Positions 1,928 to 17,354 of a DNA stretch of 25,324 nt are shown piece by piece. The position numbers and the translations under genes are program-made. The stretch spans positions 1-25,324 of IMG/VR virus record IMGVR_UViG_3300017969_000128; one strand, written 5' to 3'. The notes beneath the pieces were generated by a model, which made no database searches, was not told the DNA's origin, and saw only the letters and a program-made list of their open reading frames with translations. The stretch comes from a virus. How positions within the stretch are numbered: position 1 is the first letter of the stretch; each line of letters begins with the position of its first letter.

Positions 1928-1947
1928 TCCCTTCCCCTTGGGCTCCT

Positions 1948-1975
1948 AAAGCAGCTTCGGCTGCTTTCTTTTTTT
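1948..1975 (+). terminator. strong intrinsic terminator
   Basis: AAAGCAGC (1948-1955), a TTCG tetraloop, GCTGCTTT (1960-1967), then C and a seven-base T-run. The stem is perfect, with a very stable UUCG-type loop. The end of the T-run overlaps the first base of the late-type promoter at 1975, so one transcription unit stops exactly where the structural block begins. Confidence 0.92.
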
Positions 1976-1982
1976 ATAAATA
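1975..1982 (+). promoter_or_regulatory. T4-type late promoter TATAAATA
   Basis: An exact match to the T4 late promoter octamer, intergenic, directly after a terminator and 25 bases before the first gene of the structural block (2007), which has AGAGGA as its ribosome-binding site. In T4, such sites are read by RNA polymerase with the phage sigma factor gp55 and the sliding clamp. Those genes lie outside this window, so use here is inferred from sequence and position. Confidence 0.75.
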
Positions 1983-2006
1983 GGAGTAAGTTAGAGGAAA
2001 TACGAT

Positions 2007-3377
2007 ATGCCTAAATTTGTAAAAATGAGTCGAATAGAATGGGAAAAACCCGTTAGTCGTTCTACTGTTACGAGACGTGATGTGTTTGTGGATGCTATTA
2101 AGGCAGGTGATCCTGTTAGCGACATAGATGGCAAAGATGTGTATATTGCAAATACAGCCGCAAACATTACTGCTATTGATGATTTTATTAGTGGTAAAAA
2201 TAACACTCCTACTTTCTCTTTAGATTTAAAAAGCGGCGGAACAATTTTATCAAATAGAATTGGTAAATCACCGATATTTGGTGGAGCAGGTGTAGGTGGA
2301 GGATCTACTGGTGATACAGCAAGATTTGAATCACTTCATTGTTTATATATCGCTGCGGTATTAGGAGAAGGAACAAGAAACGAATTTTCTCATTTCACTT
2401 ATGAAACTCTTAAAAAGTATCAAGATAAAGTCAAAGTAAGTGAACCATTTGAGAAATATGTTGCTATTGATCCTTCATGGCACGAATCCTCGTATATGAT
2501 TGCACAAGAATTAATTAAAAAGAAATATGTGACAAAACAGCATACTCTTCATAGAGGTGATGCCGTAATGGATGCAATTTATAAAGCAAAAGATAAAGTA
2601 AGAAAATTAGAAGGTAAACCAAGATTAGATAGTGATAAGTGGAATCCTGGTGATATATGGGCCGTAAAGAGTGGAGTAGATCCAAAAACTATTTTCGCGA
2701 AAGCAAAAACCCTTAACGAAGTAAATATGCTAATTCTAAAACATTTTCTAGATAAAACTATTGTTGGAATATCTCTGAAAAAGGTTGGTAAAAATAAAAA
2801 AGTAAAATTATCAGAATATAATATAGAAGAAAAAATATTAGATACACACAGATTTTCAAAAGTAACTCTTGAGACTGCAGCAGGAAAAGGTATCTTTTCT
2901 TCTAAATATGGTTTCTTTTATTTTGATGGCGCAAAGAAAGCAGACATGAGAGCACCTAATTTGTATTCGGCTCTTAATATGGAATTACAAGGAAGTGGAG
3001 CACGTGCAGGTAGAGTTGGTTATGGTCAGTTAATGTATTCGGTTGCAACTCATTTAAAAACAGTTTTACCAGCAAATAAAGATCTTGTATCGCAGGCTAA
3101 ACTAATGGAAAAAGAAAAATCCCCATCAAAACTTTCAAAGGATTTTTATAAATTAGTAAAAAAGATACATCCACAAATAAAAGAAGATGAATTTATGATG
3201 GAACTTCAGACTAAACGCGGTGATGCTATTCATGCTCTATTAGCTGCAGCACATATAGGAGCTGCACTTATGAGTGCTAGTCGTACACAAAGAGATGCGT
3301 TTACATCTGAAGTAGTAAATGTTATGGCTGCGAAAACAAACGATTCGTCAGCATATGTAAAAGCGGAGCAAGCATAA
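2007..3377 (+). CDS. late-expressed phage protein, possible nuclease-like core
   Basis: A 456-residue Lys-rich protein I cannot place in a named family. A glycine-rich segment (FGGAGVGGGSTGDT, residues 91-104) is followed by RFESLHCLY. Further on, NPGDIW (213-218) lies about 38 residues before GISLKK (254-259). A conserved Asp followed by a strand ending in a Lys pair recalls PD-(D/E)XK nuclease cores, but the acidic residue usually two before the Lys is Ser here, so this is speculative. The C-terminal third is helical and includes IHALLAAAHIGAALMSASR. It is the first gene after the late-type promoter, and its stop overlaps the next start by one base, placing it with the virion genes. Confidence 0.8.
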   Translation: MPKFVKMSRIEWEKPVSRSTVTRRDVFVDAIKAGDPVSDIDGKDVYIANTAANITAIDDFISGKNNTPTFSLDLKSGGTILSNRIGKSPIFGGAGVGGGSTGDTARFESLHCLYIAAVLGEGTRNEFSHFTYETLKKYQDKVKVSEPFEKYVAIDPSWHESSYMIAQELIKKKYVTKQHTLHRGDAVMDAIYKAKDKVRKLEGKPRLDSDKWNPGDIWAVKSGVDPKTIFAKAKTLNEVNMLILKHFLDKTIVGISLKKVGKNKKVKLSEYNIEEKILDTHRFSKVTLETAAGKGIFSSKYGFFYFDGAKKADMRAPNLYSALNMELQGSGARAGRVGYGQLMYSVATHLKTVLPANKDLVSQAKLMEKEKSPSKLSKDFYKLVKKIHPQIKEDEFMMELQTKRGDAIHALLAAAHIGAALMSASRTQRDAFTSEVVNVMAAKTNDSSAYVKAEQA

Positions 3378-4108
3378 TGGCACGTTCACAATTTATGGAC
3401 TATGTCCCGATCCAAATAGCATCAGGTAAAGTATTTGAAACATCATCTCTTCATAAGTTTGGTGCTGTACCTTCTATGGGTGTAAACCAATCTGGAACAA
3501 TTTGGGACATCGATGATACTAATTATCCTTGGTCAGCTTTTACAACTGCTGGTGTTCTTACGGTTCCTGCTGTTGATGCTGCAGATAATGGGCACACGGT
3601 AACTATTATTGGATTGGACGCAGACTTTAATCCACTAGAAGAAACCATAACAGCTTCTTCTGCTACGACTACTACAACGACACAAGAATTTAAAAGAGTT
3701 TTTCGAGCATTTTGTACAGCTGGTGGTGATACTAATGCCGGTAATATAGACATCCAAAAAGACGGGACAACTGTTGCAAGAATAACAGCTGGTAAGGCTC
3801 AAACTCTAATGGCCGTTTATACTATTCCAGCAGGTTATACAGGATTTCTAATGCAAGGTGTCATGACTGTTGGCGCCAATGCGGATGCAACAGGTGATAT
3901 GTTTGTAAGATATTTTGGTCAGGATACATTTAGAGTTGGACATTCATTTGAAGTGTCAGGTATGGGTGGTCCATATAGATACCCATTTTCTATTCCGATT
4001 ATGATTCCTGAGAAATCTGATATTGATGTCCGAGCTTCTTTGCGAAGTAATAATGCACGTGTTACTGCAGCATTTGATATGATTTTAGTTCAAAGAACGG
4101 TGTTTTAA
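3377..4108 (+). CDS. putative virion structural protein (243 aa)
   Basis: A beta-rich protein of 243 residues with little Lys and much Thr, Ala and Gly, typical of phage head-surface, tail or fibre proteins. Residues 60-150 alternate short strands and turns and include a six-threonine run (SATTTTTTQEF); the C-terminal half (VGHSFEVSGMGGPYRYPFSI, then IPEKSDIDVRA) resembles small structural proteins I recall from marine T4-like phages. No signal peptide or membrane segment. It overlaps its neighbours by one base at each end (TAATG), so it is translated with them. The exact place in the virion cannot be read from sequence. Confidence 0.75.
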   Translation: MARSQFMDYVPIQIASGKVFETSSLHKFGAVPSMGVNQSGTIWDIDDTNYPWSAFTTAGVLTVPAVDAADNGHTVTIIGLDADFNPLEETITASSATTTTTTQEFKRVFRAFCTAGGDTNAGNIDIQKDGTTVARITAGKAQTLMAVYTIPAGYTGFLMQGVMTVGANADATGDMFVRYFGQDTFRVGHSFEVSGMGGPYRYPFSIPIMIPEKSDIDVRASLRSNNARVTAAFDMILVQRTVF

Positions 4109-5157
4109 TGGAAAACTTTAAGTCACATTTATCCGAACAAAAGAATACTCATATGACTCATATTGAGGATAAAGTAATTTATGGTGGCGTAAAAGGCACG
4201 CGCGATGCTATTATGGCTCTGCGGTCTTTACGAGATATGTTAAAAGGAGAACACAGTGGTTCTGTTAGTGTTAAATGGGATGGCGCTCCTGCTATTTTTG
4301 CTGGCATTGACCCTAATGACGGACGTTTCTTTGTGGCAAAGAAAGGGATTTTTAACAAGAATCCCAAAGTCTATAAAACTCCTGCTGACGTTGACGCTGA
4401 TACAAGCGGTGATCTTGCTGACAAGCTCAAAATTGCTTTGCGAGAGCTCCCAGCCTTGGGTATCAAAGGTGTCGTGCAAGGTGACTTCCTATATGGACCT
4501 GGAGATGTAAAAACAACAAAGATCAATGGAGAATCTTATGTTACATTTCATCCTAATACTATCGTCTATGCGGTACCAAGCCAGTCGCCTGGAGCTGCAG
4601 CTATTAAGAAATCTAAAATTGGAATTGTCTGGCATACAACTTATAAAGGTAATTCTTTCGAATCTATGCGAGCTTCGTATGGAGTTGATGTCTCTAAATT
4701 TAAATCAACTCGAGCTGTGTGGTCACAAGACGCAATGCTCAGAGATCTAACAAATGTAACTATGTCTAAAAGTGATACAGAGGAAGTAAATGAATATCTA
4801 TCGCAAGCTGGTAAAATTTTTAACAAAATCTCAGGAACAACTCTCCGACAACTCGAACAACAGGAAGAGTTACAGAAGCTCATTGAAACCTACGGAAATA
4901 CCTTTGTCAGAGCAGGCACAGTCATTGGAAATACAAGACGACATGTATCTGGCCTTATTTCATGGATCAAACAAAGATACCAAAAAGAAATAGATGCACG
5001 TAAAACTGAAAAAGGTAAGAATGCACAACAAAAGAAACTCGATGAAATATTAAACTTTTTTAGTCCACAGAACAGAAAAAGTTTAGAACAGATGTTCGAA
5101 TTGCAAAAAGTTATAGTTTTAGCGAAATTAAAACTTATAAATATACTTAACAAATAA
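4108..5157 (+). CDS. DUF6267-like protein with a KxDG nucleotidyltransferase motif
   Basis: A 349-residue protein resembling a family (DUF6267, from memory) common in marine T4-like phages. Near the N-terminus SVKWDGAPAIFAG (K56-W-D-G59) matches motif I of ATP-dependent DNA/RNA ligases and capping enzymes, where the Lys carries the nucleotide. VVQGDFLYG (122-130) and KIGIVWHTTY (170-179) sit roughly where ligase motifs III and IV would. I do not see a clear motif V. The substrate is unknown, and the location among structural genes is unusual for a ligase. The C-terminus is basic and helical. The frame ends at TAA (5155-5157), but the next 59 codons stay open and look like the missing end of this protein; see the following entry. 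Confidence 0.82.
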   Translation: MENFKSHLSEQKNTHMTHIEDKVIYGGVKGTRDAIMALRSLRDMLKGEHSGSVSVKWDGAPAIFAGIDPNDGRFFVAKKGIFNKNPKVYKTPADVDADTSGDLADKLKIALRELPALGIKGVVQGDFLYGPGDVKTTKINGESYVTFHPNTIVYAVPSQSPGAAAIKKSKIGIVWHTTYKGNSFESMRASYGVDVSKFKSTRAVWSQDAMLRDLTNVTMSKSDTEEVNEYLSQAGKIFNKISGTTLRQLEQQEELQKLIETYGNTFVRAGTVIGNTRRHVSGLISWIKQRYQKEIDARKTEKGKNAQQKKLDEILNFFSPQNRKSLEQMFELQKVIVLAKLKLINILNK

Positions 5158-5337
5158 GCAAAGATTAAAACCTGTGTTAAGGCTCATAATGGATATAAGG
5201 TAACAGGAGAAGAAGGTTACGTTGCTATTGACAAAATTGGTGGTGATGATGTTAAGATTGTTGATCGTATGGAATTTTCATACAATAACTTCAGCAAAGA
5301 TATATTAAAGGGATGGGATAAACCAACGAGGAAATAA
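5158..5337 (+). pseudogene. severed or read-through C-terminal module of the KxDG protein
   Basis: Right after the TAA of the preceding gene, the same frame runs open for 59 more codons to TAA at 5335-5337. It begins AKIKTCVKAHNGYKVTGEEG and continues YVAIDKIGGDDVKIVDRMEF, with no early in-frame ATG. It is protein-like, and from memory the C-termini of related phage proteins carry the same kind of G(F/Y)VAID...VK(L/I)VDR(L/M)(E/Q)FS ending as one continuous chain. One base change (for example AAA, CAA or GAA to TAA) explains the break. A nonsense mutation, stop-codon read-through or a sequence error are all possible. Confidence 0.75.
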
Positions 5338-5338
5338 G

Positions 5339-5764
5339 ATGCCGGTAGGTTTCAAAGATTATATGACCGTCGACTATAAACCTGGTGAAGACGATCAAAT
5401 CAAATATAATGCACAAAAACGCAAACGTGCAGATGTAGAAGAAGAGAATACTGACGAGGCTTTATCATTAGCAGCTCGTCGCAAGCGTTCTCGCGATATG
5501 CGTAAAAATAAAAACAAATTAAAAGTTGCTCGGTCTAGAGCAATGAAGCGTGTGGCTAATCCTGAACGTATTAAAAAGCGTGCTCGTAAGCAAGCTATTA
5601 ATATGATCTATAAAAAGTTAACAAAAGGAATGTCTCGTAGTGATTTAACTGCAGCTAAAAAAGCTGAGTTAGAAAAACGTATTGAGAAGATGAAACCTAG
5701 AGTTAATCGTCTTACAAGAAAGATACTTCCTCAAGTACGCAAGGCGGCACACGGTCAAAAATGA
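5339..5764 (+). CDS. highly basic phage protein (141 aa), virion-associated
   Basis: A strongly basic, helix-forming protein: LAARRKRSRDMRKNKNKLKV (44-63), then RSRAMKRVANPERIKKRARK and a second charged helix ending in LPQVRKAAHGQK. I recall proteins of this build between the KxDG protein and the nucleotidyltransferase in marine T4-like phages. No enzyme motif is visible. The composition fits a protein that binds DNA or serves inside the head, but that is inference. The ATG follows a GAGG by about 8 bases; the end overlaps the next gene by four bases (ATGA). Start and boundaries are solid, role is not. Confidence 0.75.
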   Translation: MPVGFKDYMTVDYKPGEDDQIKYNAQKRKRADVEEENTDEALSLAARRKRSRDMRKNKNKLKVARSRAMKRVANPERIKKRARKQAINMIYKKLTKGMSRSDLTAAKKAELEKRIEKMKPRVNRLTRKILPQVRKAAHGQK

Positions 5765-6954
5765 TTAATAGATTTAGTCAATACTTAGTTGAAGAAGAAA
5801 AGGTGGGTTATTTGGTCTTTGGCCGAATGAACCCTCCTACCATTGGTCATGGTAAGTTATTAGACAAACTCGCTAGCGTAGCTGGTCGAGCTCCTTATCG
5901 TATCTATTTGTCGCAATCAAATGATAAGAACGATAATCCACTTACATATTCAGATAAAGTAAAATTTGCTCGTAAGATGTTTCCTCGTCATGCGAGATCT
6001 ATTATTATCGATAAGAAAGTGACAACGCCATTTCATGCTTTGTCTGCTATGTATGATGCAGGATTTAAAAAGGTTATTTTAGTTGCTGGTTCAGATCGTG
6101 TACAAGAATATGATGTACGATTAAATAAGTATAATGGTAAAAAGGGTGGCCATGGTTTTTATAACTTTGACGGCGGTGTAAAGATCGTAAGCGCAGGACA
6201 AAGAGATCCTGATAGCAAAGGTGCAGAAGGCGCATCTGGTACTAAGCAAAGAGGTTATGCTAAAGATAATGACTTTACAGGATTTGCACAAGGATTAACA
6301 AAAGCTATTTCTAATCCTGATTCTCGTAAAATGTTTAATGCCGTACGCAAAGGCATGGGTCTGAAAGAACAAAGGCAATTTAAAAATCATGTACAATTAG
6401 AACCAGTTTCTGATTTAAGAGAATCATATATTCGAGATAATATCTTTGAACTTGGTGAATCTGTTGTTATATCAGCTAAAGGTATTGTAGGAACTATTAA
6501 ACATCTTGGTACAAATTATCTTATTGTTGAATCAAAGGGTGAAACATGGAGATGTTGGCTAGATCAAGTTTCAAAAGTAGATCCTAATCCAGAAATTAAA
6601 ATGGATGTTGCAGATTTTTCATTACCAAAACCAATGGCTGAATCTTTAACCGAAAGATATGATATTGGTACTGATGAATATAAGAAACACGCTTATAAAA
6701 TGACACCAGGCCAAAAAGAACAAGCATCCGCACAAGATCCTGATATAAAGGACCGCGAAGGAAGTCAGCCTAAACGTTATCATGCTGGTCTTAAAAAGGC
6801 AACAAAGGTTGCACGTGATAGACATTTTAAAAAGCATGGTAAAAAAGCTGATAATGATGCTAGTGCATATAAACCAGCACCTGGAGATAAAACCGCAAAA
6901 ACCAAAACTTCTGTTTGGACTAAAAAGTTTAAACAAATGTACGGAGACGACTAA
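5761..6954 (+). CDS. nucleotidylyltransferase-like structural-region protein
   Basis: A 397-residue fusion. The N-terminal part (about 15-120) has the cytidylyltransferase signature: VFGRMNPPTIGH (19-30, the T/HxGH motif) and a later VAGSDRVQEY (about 107-116) at the place of the second nucleotide-binding segment. This fold joins a nucleotide to a phosphorylated acceptor (as in NMN or phosphopantetheine adenylyltransferases); the acceptor here is unknown. Residues about 230-275 (GESVVISAKGIVGTIKHLG) form a small KOW/SH3-like module, and the Lys-rich C-terminus (SQPKRYHAGLKKATK, then KPAPGDKTAKTKTS) is shared with phage structural-region proteins. It sits between virion-type genes with 1-4 base overlaps, so a virion role is possible. 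Confidence 0.85.
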   Translation: MINRFSQYLVEEEKVGYLVFGRMNPPTIGHGKLLDKLASVAGRAPYRIYLSQSNDKNDNPLTYSDKVKFARKMFPRHARSIIIDKKVTTPFHALSAMYDAGFKKVILVAGSDRVQEYDVRLNKYNGKKGGHGFYNFDGGVKIVSAGQRDPDSKGAEGASGTKQRGYAKDNDFTGFAQGLTKAISNPDSRKMFNAVRKGMGLKEQRQFKNHVQLEPVSDLRESYIRDNIFELGESVVISAKGIVGTIKHLGTNYLIVESKGETWRCWLDQVSKVDPNPEIKMDVADFSLPKPMAESLTERYDIGTDEYKKHAYKMTPGQKEQASAQDPDIKDREGSQPKRYHAGLKKATKVARDRHFKKHGKKADNDASAYKPAPGDKTAKTKTSVWTKKFKQMYGDD

Positions 6955-7319
6955 TGGAAAATATGAAACTTCCAATTGCTTTAGTTGTTGCCATGGTCGC
7001 ACAAATATCTGCTGGCGTATGGTGGGTATCTCAACAAGCTGCTACCATTACTTCTTTAGAAGCCACAGTATCTGAAATGAGTTCGAAAATGGCTATCGAA
7101 GAAAATGTAAATCTTCGTAGAGACGTTGATGAACATCATAATGAAATCGATGAATTGTGGGAAGAGACTGAATATCTATGGGAAATGGAACAATCTCTTA
7201 ATATGATTTTACAGCAACAAATAGAAATAAAAGGCCGCATATCAGTTCTTGAGCATGAATTAAACTATATTAACAGAGATCATAATAATATGCTTGATAT
7301 GAAAGGCGGGATGGACTAA
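6954..7319 (+). CDS. membrane-anchored coiled-coil protein (121 aa)
   Basis: Residues 5-24 (KLPIALVVAMVAQISAGVWW) form one hydrophobic segment, followed by a long helical, acidic coiled coil (SLEATVSEMSSKMAIEENVN, then heptad-like repeats to the end). The layout is a single N-terminal anchor with a soluble domain. I recall similar short proteins with AMVxQxSxGVWWVSQQA starts in marine T4-like phages but know no function. It overlaps both neighbours by one base (TAATG). Possible roles are a spanin-like or superinfection-related membrane protein; the coiled coil would face the periplasm if the anchor is N-in. Confidence 0.75.
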   Translation: MENMKLPIALVVAMVAQISAGVWWVSQQAATITSLEATVSEMSSKMAIEENVNLRRDVDEHHNEIDELWEETEYLWEMEQSLNMILQQQIEIKGRISVLEHELNYINRDHNNMLDMKGGMD

Positions 7320-7558
7320 TGATACATTTTAAAGAATATATCAAAGAAGATAAAGCAGGTAGTTCACTTGCCGATAAGTCTAAAAAGTCAGGTATTTCTG
7401 TAGATACATTACGTAAAGTATATAATCGAGGTGTAGCAGCATGGAAAACTGGTCATAGACCAGGAACAACACCATCTCAATGGGGACATGCAAGAGTTAA
7501 TGCCTTTATTGTCAAAAAGAAAAAAGGTGGTCTTAACCACGATAAGGATTTAGCATAA
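7319..7558 (+). CDS. DUF5824-like small phage protein
   Basis: A 79-residue basic protein. The core SGISVDTLRKVYNRGVAAWK followed by TGHRPGTTPSQWGHARVN is the signature I associate with DUF5824, a short domain in many marine T4-like phages, standing alone or fused to other structural-region proteins. No catalytic motif is evident; function unknown. It overlaps the flanking genes by one base on each side, so it is probably made together with the coiled-coil protein before it and the large basic protein after it. Confidence 0.85.
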   Translation: MIHFKEYIKEDKAGSSLADKSKKSGISVDTLRKVYNRGVAAWKTGHRPGTTPSQWGHARVNAFIVKKKKGGLNHDKDLA

Positions 7559-8979
7559 TGCCATTAAAAGTTTCACACGGAATAAAATCTTGGATTGATG
7601 ATTTTCAACAGTCAAAAGATAAACGATTTGACGGTAAATCTGCTGAGAAGCGGAGAGAAATGGCTATTGCCGCATATATGGCTGCAAAGCGTGAACAAAA
7701 AGAAAACGTTAGATCAGCAGATAGTAAACCACAAGTATTTACGAAGCCTGATGGTAAAAAGGGTATACGTATGGTACCGGTAGATCGTGCAGTTGTGAAA
7801 CAAGAAAAAAATCTTGAATGGCTAAAAGCTGCACTTGAAGCACAAGCACGTAAAGCTAAACCATGTGATGAAGATGTAGAAGAAACTTCTGAAGCTAAGG
7901 TTGATGAACTATCAATGAGCTTAAAGGATATTAAAAAGACTGGTTTAAATAAAGCCGTAACTGCTAATAAAGAAAAACTTAAAAAAGATCTTGAAGCTAT
8001 GAAAGCCAAATTAAATAAAGAAGCTAAAGTTGATGAAGTTTCACTGGACACTGCAAAATCCGCGTATGTTAAGCGTAAGATAAAAGCTTATGATGCAGCA
8101 GCACAGGGTTCAATGGATTATGCTAAAAAACAAATGGCAAAGGCTCGCAAAACAAAAGCTTATATCGATAAACGTGAATCAGTAGAAGAAGCTACTATGT
8201 CAACTAAAACTGGTCGTAAACAAGCCGCGGCCGATGCAGTAGCACACCATAAAGCAATGGTGAAAAAATGGGGTATAAGTCACCCAGCAACTAAAGATGC
8301 TGAAAAAGCTGCAAACTACCATATGAAAAAAGCTAATGAAGTTCTTGACCGTCCAGGTGCATTAGATAGTTATAGAAAAAAGGCTGATGCAAGCGGTAAT
8401 AGAGCACGTAACTCTGCTACTCGTAAAATTCTAACACAACCTAAAAACGGTAAAAGACCTGATCATTCTGATGAATTGAATACTATGCGTAAGCGTAATA
8501 AAGGTCAAGACATGGCGGACAGAGCTGCTAATAGACATTTCCGCAAATCTCTTGGTTTAGGTTATAATAGCAAAAAAGAATCAGTTGAGCTAGATGAAAA
8601 GAAATACGCAGCTAAATCTGCTGAAAGACATAAAAATCTTATGAAGCAAGCAAGATCTGATATGAAAAATGCTACATCTCATTCTGACATGATTAAGCAT
8701 ATGAATAAGTATCAGTCTGCAAAGAAAGCTCATGATCGTGCAACACGTGCCCAGTTTGATGAAAACAAAGTTGATGAAATCTCAAATGCCAAGATGGGTC
8801 AATATGTACGTAAAGCAACTGATGATGCAGCACGTAGAGCTATGGATGCTGGTGAAAAAGCAGGCCGAGGCGATTCAAAGGGTTTCGGTAAACAAATGGT
8901 AAAGTCACGTCAAAGAGTTAAAGGCGTACATAAAGCCATGGATAAGATGGACAAAAACAGATTGTACAGGAGACAATAA
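7558..8979 (+). CDS. basic repeat protein, probable head-associated
   Basis: A 473-residue Lys/Ala-rich helical protein. The N-terminus (PLKVSHGIKSWIDDF, then KSAEKRREMAIAAYMAAKRE) resembles a module common in marine T4-like structural regions. The rest is built from degenerate repeats anchored on VDE(L/V/I)S: KVDELS near residue 114, KVDEVS near 157, KVDEIS near 404, with a looser VELDE near 343, each followed by a basic helix such as YVRKATDDAARRA. The next gene carries the same module (KIDELSIDTMKSY). Composition suggests binding to DNA or to other head proteins inside the capsid or its scaffold. This is inferred from build and context, as no catalytic motif is visible. Confidence 0.8.
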   Translation: MPLKVSHGIKSWIDDFQQSKDKRFDGKSAEKRREMAIAAYMAAKREQKENVRSADSKPQVFTKPDGKKGIRMVPVDRAVVKQEKNLEWLKAALEAQARKAKPCDEDVEETSEAKVDELSMSLKDIKKTGLNKAVTANKEKLKKDLEAMKAKLNKEAKVDEVSLDTAKSAYVKRKIKAYDAAAQGSMDYAKKQMAKARKTKAYIDKRESVEEATMSTKTGRKQAAADAVAHHKAMVKKWGISHPATKDAEKAANYHMKKANEVLDRPGALDSYRKKADASGNRARNSATRKILTQPKNGKRPDHSDELNTMRKRNKGQDMADRAANRHFRKSLGLGYNSKKESVELDEKKYAAKSAERHKNLMKQARSDMKNATSHSDMIKHMNKYQSAKKAHDRATRAQFDENKVDEISNAKMGQYVRKATDDAARRAMDAGEKAGRGDSKGFGKQMVKSRQRVKGVHKAMDKMDKNRLYRRQ

Positions 8980-16512: not shown

Positions 16513-16914
16513 ATGTGGGTTTATAATAATAAAGAATTTAACGAAACCCCTGAAGAATTTCAGGGGTTTGTTTATATGATCACCGAAAAAGATACCGGTA
16601 AAAAATATATCGGTAAAAAGTTTTTCTGGAAACCGAAGGTTTTGCCAGTGACTAAGTCACGCAAACGTCGGATTCGTACGAGAGTTGAGTCTGATTGGCG
16701 CACATATTACGGATCAAGTAAAGAAGTAAAAACTTTGGTTGAAGAAAAAGGAGAAGACAATTATATAAGAGAGATTCTTAAACTCTGTAGAACGAAAGGA
16801 GAATGCTCTTATTATGAAGCTAAATATCAATTTGAGTTTGACGTGTTATTGAGCGATGAATATTACAATGAATTTATTGGATGTAAGATTCATTCTAAGC
16901 ATGTCCGAATATAA
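16513..16914 (+). CDS. GIY-YIG-type endonuclease-like protein
   Basis: A 133-residue protein with the GIY-YIG layout: GFVYMITEKDTGKKYIGKKF (18-37) supplies the GIY-like and YIG elements, followed by a basic stretch (KSRKRRIRTRVESDWRTYYG). ECSYYEAKYQFEFDVLLSDE and YYNEFIGCKIHSKH are familiar from the Seg-like nucleases of T4-like marine phages. Such enzymes nick or cut DNA and often act as free-standing homing nucleases. No Shine-Dalgarno precedes the ATG, and a strong hairpin (16544-16569) lies at codons 11-19, so translation may be held low, as for T4 homing nucleases. The family call is fairly sure, activity inferred. Confidence 0.8.
   Translation: MWVYNNKEFNETPEEFQGFVYMITEKDTGKKYIGKKFFWKPKVLPVTKSRKRRIRTRVESDWRTYYGSSKEVKTLVEEKGEDNYIREILKLCRTKGECSYYEAKYQFEFDVLLSDEYYNEFIGCKIHSKHVRI
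16544..16569 (+). terminator. strong GC-rich hairpin in the 5' coding part of the nuclease gene
   Basis: AAACCCCTGAA (16544-16554), GAAT loop, TTCAGGGGTTT (16559-16569): an 11-bp perfect stem followed by GTTT. It is the most stable hairpin by eye in the window and could stop transcripts from the reductase operon or block translation. The short T-run makes efficient intrinsic termination uncertain. Confidence 0.6.
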
Positions 16915-16917
16915 ATA
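16910..16917 (+). promoter_or_regulatory. T4-type late promoter TATAAATA (second exact copy)
   Basis: An exact late octamer at the very end of the nuclease gene (overlapping its TAA), 20 bases before the DUF6433-like start. A transcript beginning about 6 bases downstream would keep AGAGGA (16928-16933) as ribosome-binding site. Two such sites, each directly before a phage-conserved gene, support a gp55-type late system in this phage. Confidence 0.68.
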
Positions 16918-16937: not shown

Positions 16938-17354
16938 ATGCCAAGATTAGTATATGAAGTGATTCGCCGAGCGAAGAATAAACGTAATAAAGAAGATAAA
17001 ATTAAAGCTCTACAAGAAGACGAAACATGGGCTTTGAAAGATATTTTACGAGGAGTATATGACTCATCCGTAGAATTTAATCTCCCAGAAGGAGATCCTC
17101 CATACACAGCAAATGAAGAACATAATGCTCCTACAAATTTATTGAGAGAGCATAAAAAGTTTATTAACTTTGTAAAAGGTGGGCCTGGAGATAACATGCC
17201 AGCATTTAAACGAGAAAGAATCTTTTTTGAAATCTTAGAAGGTGTACATCCTGAAGATGCTAAGCTTGTTGTCAAAATGATTAATAAAGAAAAGCTAGAT
17301 GGAATTACGAGACCAATAATCGAGGGTGCTTTTCCTGGATTATTGCGTGATTAG
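16938..17354 (+). CDS. DUF6433-like protein (138 aa)
   Basis: A 138-residue protein recalled as DUF6433, a small helical domain common in marine T4-like phages. Signature stretches: AKNKRNKEDKIKALQEDETW (12-31), LKDILRGVYDSSVEFNLPEG (33-52) and HPEDAKLVVKMINKEKLDG. It is often near tail or head assembly genes and its role is unknown. The start is ATG 16938 with AGAGGA just upstream; a late-type promoter is close. No membrane segment or catalytic motif. Confidence 0.82.
   Translation: MPRLVYEVIRRAKNKRNKEDKIKALQEDETWALKDILRGVYDSSVEFNLPEGDPPYTANEEHNAPTNLLREHKKFINFVKGGPGDNMPAFKRERIFFEILEGVHPEDAKLVVKMINKEKLDGITRPIIEGAFPGLLRD

What the first reader, a model, noticed from the sequence alone, without database searches (positions are those of the whole stretch)
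5136..5337. In-frame TAA splits a KxDG protein; 59 codons beyond the stop still look like its C-terminus
The frame of the gene at 4108 ends at TAA 5155-5157, yet the same frame remains open for 59 codons (5158-5337) with protein-like content (GYVAIDKIGG, VKIVDRMEF). It has no early start codon, and the next gene begins only after it ends. From memory, related phage proteins carry this module without a break. It may be a fresh nonsense mutation, stop-codon read-through producing a longer minor form (as in some capsid and tail proteins), or a base-call error. A TATAAATA late octamer (5136-5143) lies 12 bases before the stop, which may be coincidence within KLKLINIL.
Basis: partly seen in the sequence, partly recalled or inferred. 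Interest (0 to 1): 0.78.

Follow-up and report, generated by a model that had tools for sequence, protein, structure and literature searches.

The report
One-off stop in intact phage gene
A marine T4-type phage sequence has a stop codon that cuts off the last 59 amino acids of a ligase-like protein; hundreds of complete related genes run straight through this place, so the stop is a one-off (probably a sequence error, possibly a fresh mutation), while the nearby 'TATAAATA' that was set aside as possible coincidence looks like a strongly conserved late-gene promoter hidden inside the gene.

Summary
The stop is real in the given sequence: TAA 5155-5157 in a DUF6267 gene (4108-), followed in frame by 59 open codons (5158-5334) that match the end of the same family. 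It is private to this record. All 117 distinct near relatives, and the more distant complete genes checked, are full length; three near-identical strains encode leucine there. The TAA version occurs nowhere else in viral contigs. Across the whole protein the only window residues never seen in relatives are the stop and three substitutions just after it (C356, A359, D381), one at a residue invariant in 82 diverse homologues. A functional read-through extension should keep such residues, so read-through is unlikely. A short stretch of base-call or assembly error fits best (about 0.55); a real nonsense mutation with decay is next (about 0.38). Reads are needed to decide. It is most likely a T4-type late promoter inside a coding sequence.

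The parts
4108..5157 (+). Truncated DUF6267 ORF (349 aa) of a T4-type marine phage; contains KWDG at 4273-4284
   Evidence: PF19782 1.3e-86; K56-W57-D58-G59 invariant in 82 homologues
5155..5157 (+). In-frame TAA at codon 350, private to this record
   Evidence: sense codon (112 of 117 Leu) in all distinct near relatives; TAA version absent from viral contigs, three near-identical strains carry a leucine codon
5158..5337 (+). 59-codon in-frame C-terminal remainder of DUF6267 with its own terminator TAA 5335-5337; holds EG (5212-5217, motif IV-like) and Lys383 (5254-5256, motif V-like)
   Evidence: tail homologous to all relatives; 17 of 52 invariant family columns lie here
5156..5249 (+). Cluster of five record-private base differences (5156, 5174, 5182, 5205, 5249): stop, C356, A359, one silent, D381
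   Evidence: only private residues in the whole protein; 1 transition and 4 transversions against 55 and 24 elsewhere
5136..5143 (+). TATAAATA, T4-type late promoter octamer embedded in codons 343-346
5149..5149 (+). Inferred late transcription start (octamer at -13 to -6)
   Evidence: Inference from the T4 geometry given in PMC1524935; not measured
5339..5764 (+). Next gene (141 aa), first gene downstream of the embedded octamer
   Evidence: median 194 nt from octamer to next start and 1 nt from DUF6267 stop to next start in relatives

Best explanation
The TAA is a one-off disruption of a normally intact DUF6267 gene. It sits at the head of a 94-base patch (5156-5249) of record-private, mostly amino-acid-changing differences, and the most likely cause is local base-call or assembly error in a thinly covered stretch of the contig. 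The real phage then makes the full 409-residue protein, a putative ATP-dependent RNA/DNA-ligase-like nucleotidyltransferase (KxDG motif I near the start, EGxV motif IV and a motif V lysine in the 59-residue tail). Independently of the stop, the octamer TATAAATA twelve bases before it is most likely a gp55-type late promoter inside the coding sequence, starting a late transcript near 5149 that serves the tightly packed genes from 5339 on (confidence about 0.88 for this part). Shown: uniqueness of the stop, privacy and clustering of the changes, DNA-level conservation and strand bias of the octamer. Inferred: error as the cause, catalytic role of the motifs, promoter activity.
For: All 117 distinct near CDS are 391-418 aa and have a sense codon at 350; of 234 further complete loci none is interrupted near this place. 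Three near-identical strains (L160 99.5% over 9.9 kb, L159, L161) lack all five private changes, and no viral contig holds the private alleles. Window residues absent from all 117 relatives: only codons 350, 356, 359, 381; four random codons fall within 32 of 408 with P 0.0018. Nonsynonymous share 4 of 5 in the patch against 9 of 67 elsewhere (Fisher P 0.003). Transition:transversion 1:4 against 55:24 for true strain differences (P 0.04). About 1,000 synonymous sites in 4108-5154 and 5250-8426 carry no private change, so neutral decay at the local rate would give under 0.53 changes where four follow the stop (P about 0.002). Octamer: 109 of 114 against 5.2 expected, 143 + and 0 - in 468 kb, 0 of 199 genes in other clades, Asn345 fixed only in the octamer clade.
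Against: No reads or depth could be examined, so error is inferred. The stop is the first member of the patch, which decay after a real nonsense mutation predicts and error gives only by chance (1 in 5). Short mosaic blocks of strain variation exist nearby (2111-2426, 5482-5542, 7724-7799), so an imported decayed segment is possible. The rate argument rests on few events and an assumed shared rate.
Confidence: 0.55

Rival explanations
1. A real nonsense mutation in this strain or sub-population. The last 59 residues (putative motifs IV and V) are not made, the enzyme is dead, and the untranslated tail is drifting. The phage tolerates it because the gene is dispensable and the late promoter upstream of the stop still serves the downstream genes.
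For: Private residue changes lie only after the stop, none in the 349 codons before it. The patch is 4 of 5 nonsynonymous, as expected without selection. The octamer is intact.
Against: Four further changes in 94 bases while about 1,000 synonymous sites nearby have no private change (P about 0.002), and the spectrum is transversion-rich. No other member of the family has lost this tail, so tolerance is unprecedented in the sample.
Confidence: 0.38
2. Programmed or leaky read-through of TAA gives a short major form and a long minor form, as in some capsid and tail proteins.
For: The frame stays open to the normal terminator and the tail is homologous to the family.
Against: No relative has a stop there. 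The tail has lost residues that do not vary in the family (A381 invariant in 82 homologues, F356 in 116 of 117), the reverse of selection on a used extension. TAA is the usual terminator here (24 of 38 genes) and no tRNA gene was found in the window. DUF6267 is not known as a virion protein.
Confidence: 0.03
3. Two separate genes: the tail is translated on its own from the late transcript that begins at the embedded promoter.
For: The inferred late start lies just before the tail. T4 uvsW/uvsW.1 shows that a supposed C-terminus can be a gene of its own (PMC1524935).
Against: No start codon early in the tail. Relatives encode one continuous protein with no conserved start at codon 350.
Confidence: 0.02

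Closest known systems
DUF6267 (PF19782) / PHROG 455, T4-like gene cluster 71 in P-HM2
   Same: Window protein plus tail match the family end to end. Neighbouring cytidylyltransferase as in Kyanoviridae.
   Different: Only this record has the stop and the private changes after it.
T4-type late promoter (TATAAATA, recognised by gp55 with gp33 and the gp45 clamp; PMC2988020)
   Same: Exact octamer, A/T-rich stretch directly downstream, no -35 element needed. Clade member C48C1 is annotated with a late sigma factor and a clamp and has 16 octamers in 100 kb, all on the gene strand and many just upstream of head and tail genes.
   Different: Lies wholly inside a coding sequence about 190 nt before the next gene. 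Earlier cyanophage surveys accepted only sites that were intergenic or overlapped a gene by about 10 bp (PMC3037559), so such sites were not counted.
ATP-dependent RNA/DNA ligases (T. brucei REL1 1xdn, T4 Rnl2, human DNA ligase 1)
   Same: KxDG and EGxV motifs invariant; ligases recur among the best structural matches, Z 4.8-6.8.
   Different: No sequence match to solved ligases. Z below 8 and Foldseek E above 0.04. Long helical part 220-350. Tail poorly modelled.
Stop-codon read-through in phage structural proteins
   Same: Open frame after the stop.
   Different: Stop not conserved, extension not under constraint in this record.

Membership tests
DUF6267 (PF19782) | Score above the curated cut-off (27 bits) | tested here: met
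   291.7 bits for 4108-5154 and 35.8 bits for the tail alone
T4-type late promoter | TATAAATA on the gene strand, no -35 element | tested here: met
   exact octamer, 143 + against 0 - in related loci
T4-type late promoter | Conserved beyond coding needs | tested here: met
   109 of 114 against 5.2 expected; Ile344 ATA and Asn345 AAT in all 114; residue 346 nearly always an A-starting codon; site absent in 199 genes of other clades
T4-type late promoter | A/T-rich segment just downstream of the octamer | tested here: met
   mostly A/T from +8 to +18 of the octamer in 109 sequences, one position mainly C
T4-type late promoter | gp55-like late sigma factor and sliding clamp encoded by the phage | tested here: inconclusive
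   Annotated in relative C48C1; not visible in this 25-kb fragment
T4-type late promoter | Late transcript 5' end about 6 nt after the octamer | not testable with these tools
   Needs 5' RNA mapping
Covalent nucleotidyltransferase (ligase/capping enzyme) superfamily | Motif I KxDG | tested here: met
   K56-W57-D58-G59 invariant in 82 homologues
Covalent nucleotidyltransferase (ligase/capping enzyme) superfamily | Motif IV EGxV and motif V lysine | tested here: met
   E369 G370 V372 and K383 invariant in 82 homologues; assignment of the motifs by pattern only
Covalent nucleotidyltransferase (ligase/capping enzyme) superfamily | Shared adenylation-domain fold | tested here: inconclusive
   Ligases at Z 4.8-6.8, under the level that stands out; tail pLDDT under 50
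Stop-codon read-through system | Stop codon conserved among relatives | tested here: not met
Stop-codon read-through system | Purifying selection on the extension in the record that bears the stop | tested here: not met
   changes at otherwise invariant residues

The most novel reading that the evidence does not exclude
In this one strain the stop is real and is read through at some rate, giving a short and a long form of the ligase-like protein, with the embedded late promoter letting the downstream genes escape the loss of translation beyond the stop.
Probability: 0.03. Interest if true: 0.65.

Novelty: new member of a known kind. Interest (0 to 1): 0.33.

Why it matters
The stop itself should be treated as an unverified, record-private disruption and not as evidence for recoding. 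The useful result is the octamer. In a clade of abundant marine T4-type phages a late promoter is kept inside a coding sequence strongly enough to fix codons, and apparently a residue, of the host protein. Promoter surveys that admit only intergenic sites miss such promoters, so late-gene maps of these tightly packed genomes are incomplete. The claim can be tested by one 5' RNA mapping in an isolate.

Tried and rejected
Alternative genetic code: TAA ends 24 of 38 window genes and relatives have leucine at codon 350; rejected. Separate tail gene: no early start codon and no conserved start in relatives; rejected. Import of the patch from a known relative: the private residues at 356, 359 and 381 occur in none of 117 relatives and no viral contig carries the private alleles. 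Segment copied from elsewhere in the window: best second match 46 of 91. T4 gene e / I-TevI type control, in which the long early transcript hides the ribosome site: accessibility at the next start does not differ between long and late-start transcripts (0.587 against 0.596, P 0.23); no support. Sequence search of solved structures: no convincing relative. Literature: no held paper mentions DUF6267. A host-genome scan gave only MAG contigs that hold phage-like relatives, matched along most of the protein except one contig fragment. A second element of codon constraint (codons 377-379) was seen and not explained.

Full report
Observation. The ORF at 4108 ends at TAA 5155-5157; the frame then stays open to TAA 5335-5337 without an early start, and the next gene starts at 5339. 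The upstream part matches Pfam DUF6267 positions 1-331, the tail alone matches positions 336-374, and both lie in sequence on PHROG 455. So the tail is the family's normal C-terminus. The window is a 25,324-base virus record. Annotated isolates with the same gene are T4-type Kyanoviridae, nearest Phage C48C1 at 64% identity.

Is the stop shared? No. In the 80 best IMG/VR relatives the position is a sense codon. All complete near relatives encode 391-418 residues. Among 117 distinct CDS codon 350 is Leu in 112, otherwise Ile, Val or Ala. Of 234 further complete loci from three other clades none is interrupted near this place; one, L381, has a stop at about codon 4 next to a contig end. An exact 26-base pattern with the stop finds nothing in viral contigs; the same pattern with a leucine codon finds three contigs. 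These are near-identical strains: L160 is 99.5% identical over 9.9 kb, L159 99.1% over 6.5 kb, and L161 is 92-96% in pieces.

What surrounds the stop. Against these three strains the window's private differences in 1945-8426 are six silent ones at 2111-2376, one at 5021 (N305, a residue that other relatives also use), and five at 5156-5249: the stop, F to C at 356, T to A at 359, one silent, and A to D at 381. Over the whole protein the only window residues found in none of 117 relatives are 350, 356, 359 and 381. A381 is invariant in an alignment of 82 homologues at 36-80% identity to the first sequence. The patch is 4 of 5 nonsynonymous, against 9 of 67 elsewhere (P 0.003), and 1 transition to 4 transversions, against 55 to 24 for ordinary strain differences over 17.1 kb (P 0.04). 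Four random codons would fall this close with P 0.0018.

Reading of the patch. Constraint on the tail is absent in this record. That speaks against a read-through form in use. It fits either error or decay after a real nonsense mutation. Decay explains why the stop comes first. Error explains the odd spectrum and the density, since about 1,000 synonymous sites nearby carry no private change, so that neutral drift would give under 0.53 changes where four are seen (P about 0.002; the site count is an estimate). I put error at 0.55 and a real nonsense mutation at 0.38. Reads would settle it and were not available. L159 shows that such contigs also carry other small disruptions: it lacks one base at window 5985, in the cytidylyltransferase gene.

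What is lost. The family keeps K56-W57-D58-G59 (motif I pattern) and, in the tail, E369-G370-x-V372 and K383 (motif IV and V patterns). 17 of 52 invariant columns lie in the last 59 residues. The model of the intact protein has a confident core and a poor tail. Among Foldseek's candidates re-aligned by VIA-align, RNA and DNA ligases recur (T. brucei REL1 Z 6.8, T4 Rnl2 6.5, human DNA ligase 1 5.8), mixed with unrelated helical proteins and below the level that stands out. A ligase-like nucleotidyltransferase is therefore likely but not shown. On that reading the 349-residue form is inactive.

The octamer. TATAAATA at 5136-5143 spans codons 343-346. It is kept in 109 of 114 clade members, where codon usage for the same residues predicts 5.2. 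Ile344 is ATA and Asn345 is AAT in all 114; residue 346 changes between Ile, Lys, Thr, Ser and Asn but its codon nearly always starts with A. In other clades residue 345 is mostly Arg, Lys or Asp, and none of 199 genes has the octamer in its last 260 bases. In 468 kb of near loci the octamer occurs 143 times on the gene strand and never on the other, the strongest bias of 56 anagrams of similar abundance; overlapping contigs were not removed for that count. In the first 100 kb of C48C1 there are 16, all on the + strand: 11 are between genes or at a gene boundary, several just before head and tail genes, and 5 lie inside genes, 75-198 nt from the end of the host gene. C48C1 is annotated with a late sigma factor and a sliding clamp. 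In relatives the DUF6267 stop and the next start are a median of 1 nt apart, so there is no intergenic room for a promoter. T4 late promoters are this octamer at -13 to -6 with an A/T-rich stretch downstream (PMC1524935, PMC2988020), which the site has. The start would be near 5149, and the late mRNA would carry the 59-codon tail as leader. Cyanophage surveys required promoters to be intergenic or to overlap a gene by about 10 bp (PMC3037559). Relatedness of the sequences inflates the raw counts; 85 sequences under 80% codon identity show the same constraint.

Verdict. The stop is ordinary or an artefact until reads say otherwise.

Noticed in passing
5136-5143: TATAAATA conserved as DNA inside the DUF6267 coding sequence in one clade only; likely embedded late promoter.
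   Followed up: yes
1975-1982 and 16910-16917: Two further TATAAATA octamers on the + strand, the first intergenic before the gene at 2007, the second overlapping the last bases of the ORF ending at 16914 and just before the gene at 16938.
   Followed up: no
5236-5244: Codons 377-379 (I/L-G-G) show the strongest synonymous codon conservation in the gene (GGT at 379 in 114 of 114); cause unknown.
   Followed up: partly
L159, window-equivalent 5985: Near-identical contig IMGVR_UViG_3300018049_000986 lacks one base in the cytidylyltransferase gene, a frameshift or an error.
   Followed up: partly
2111-2426, 5482-5542, 6342-6400, 7724-7799: Differences between near-identical strains are packed in short mosaic blocks with long identical stretches between: recombination or mixed-strain assembly.
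   Followed up: no
L162 / OQ984149.1 64695, 28045, 57171, 66740: In phage C48C1 four more octamers lie inside genes near their 3' ends, such as the cytidylyltransferase and the gene annotated as a clamp loader; embedded late promoters may be common in this lineage.
   Followed up: partly
L167 3934, L173 3934, L172 3892: Cyanophages S-CAM9, S-PRM1 and DSL-LC02 have GATAAATA inside DUF6267 at another position.
   Followed up: no
5761-6954: PHROG 455 covers both DUF6267 and part of the cytidylyltransferase gene, which suggests fused or linked forms elsewhere and a joint pathway.
   Followed up: no
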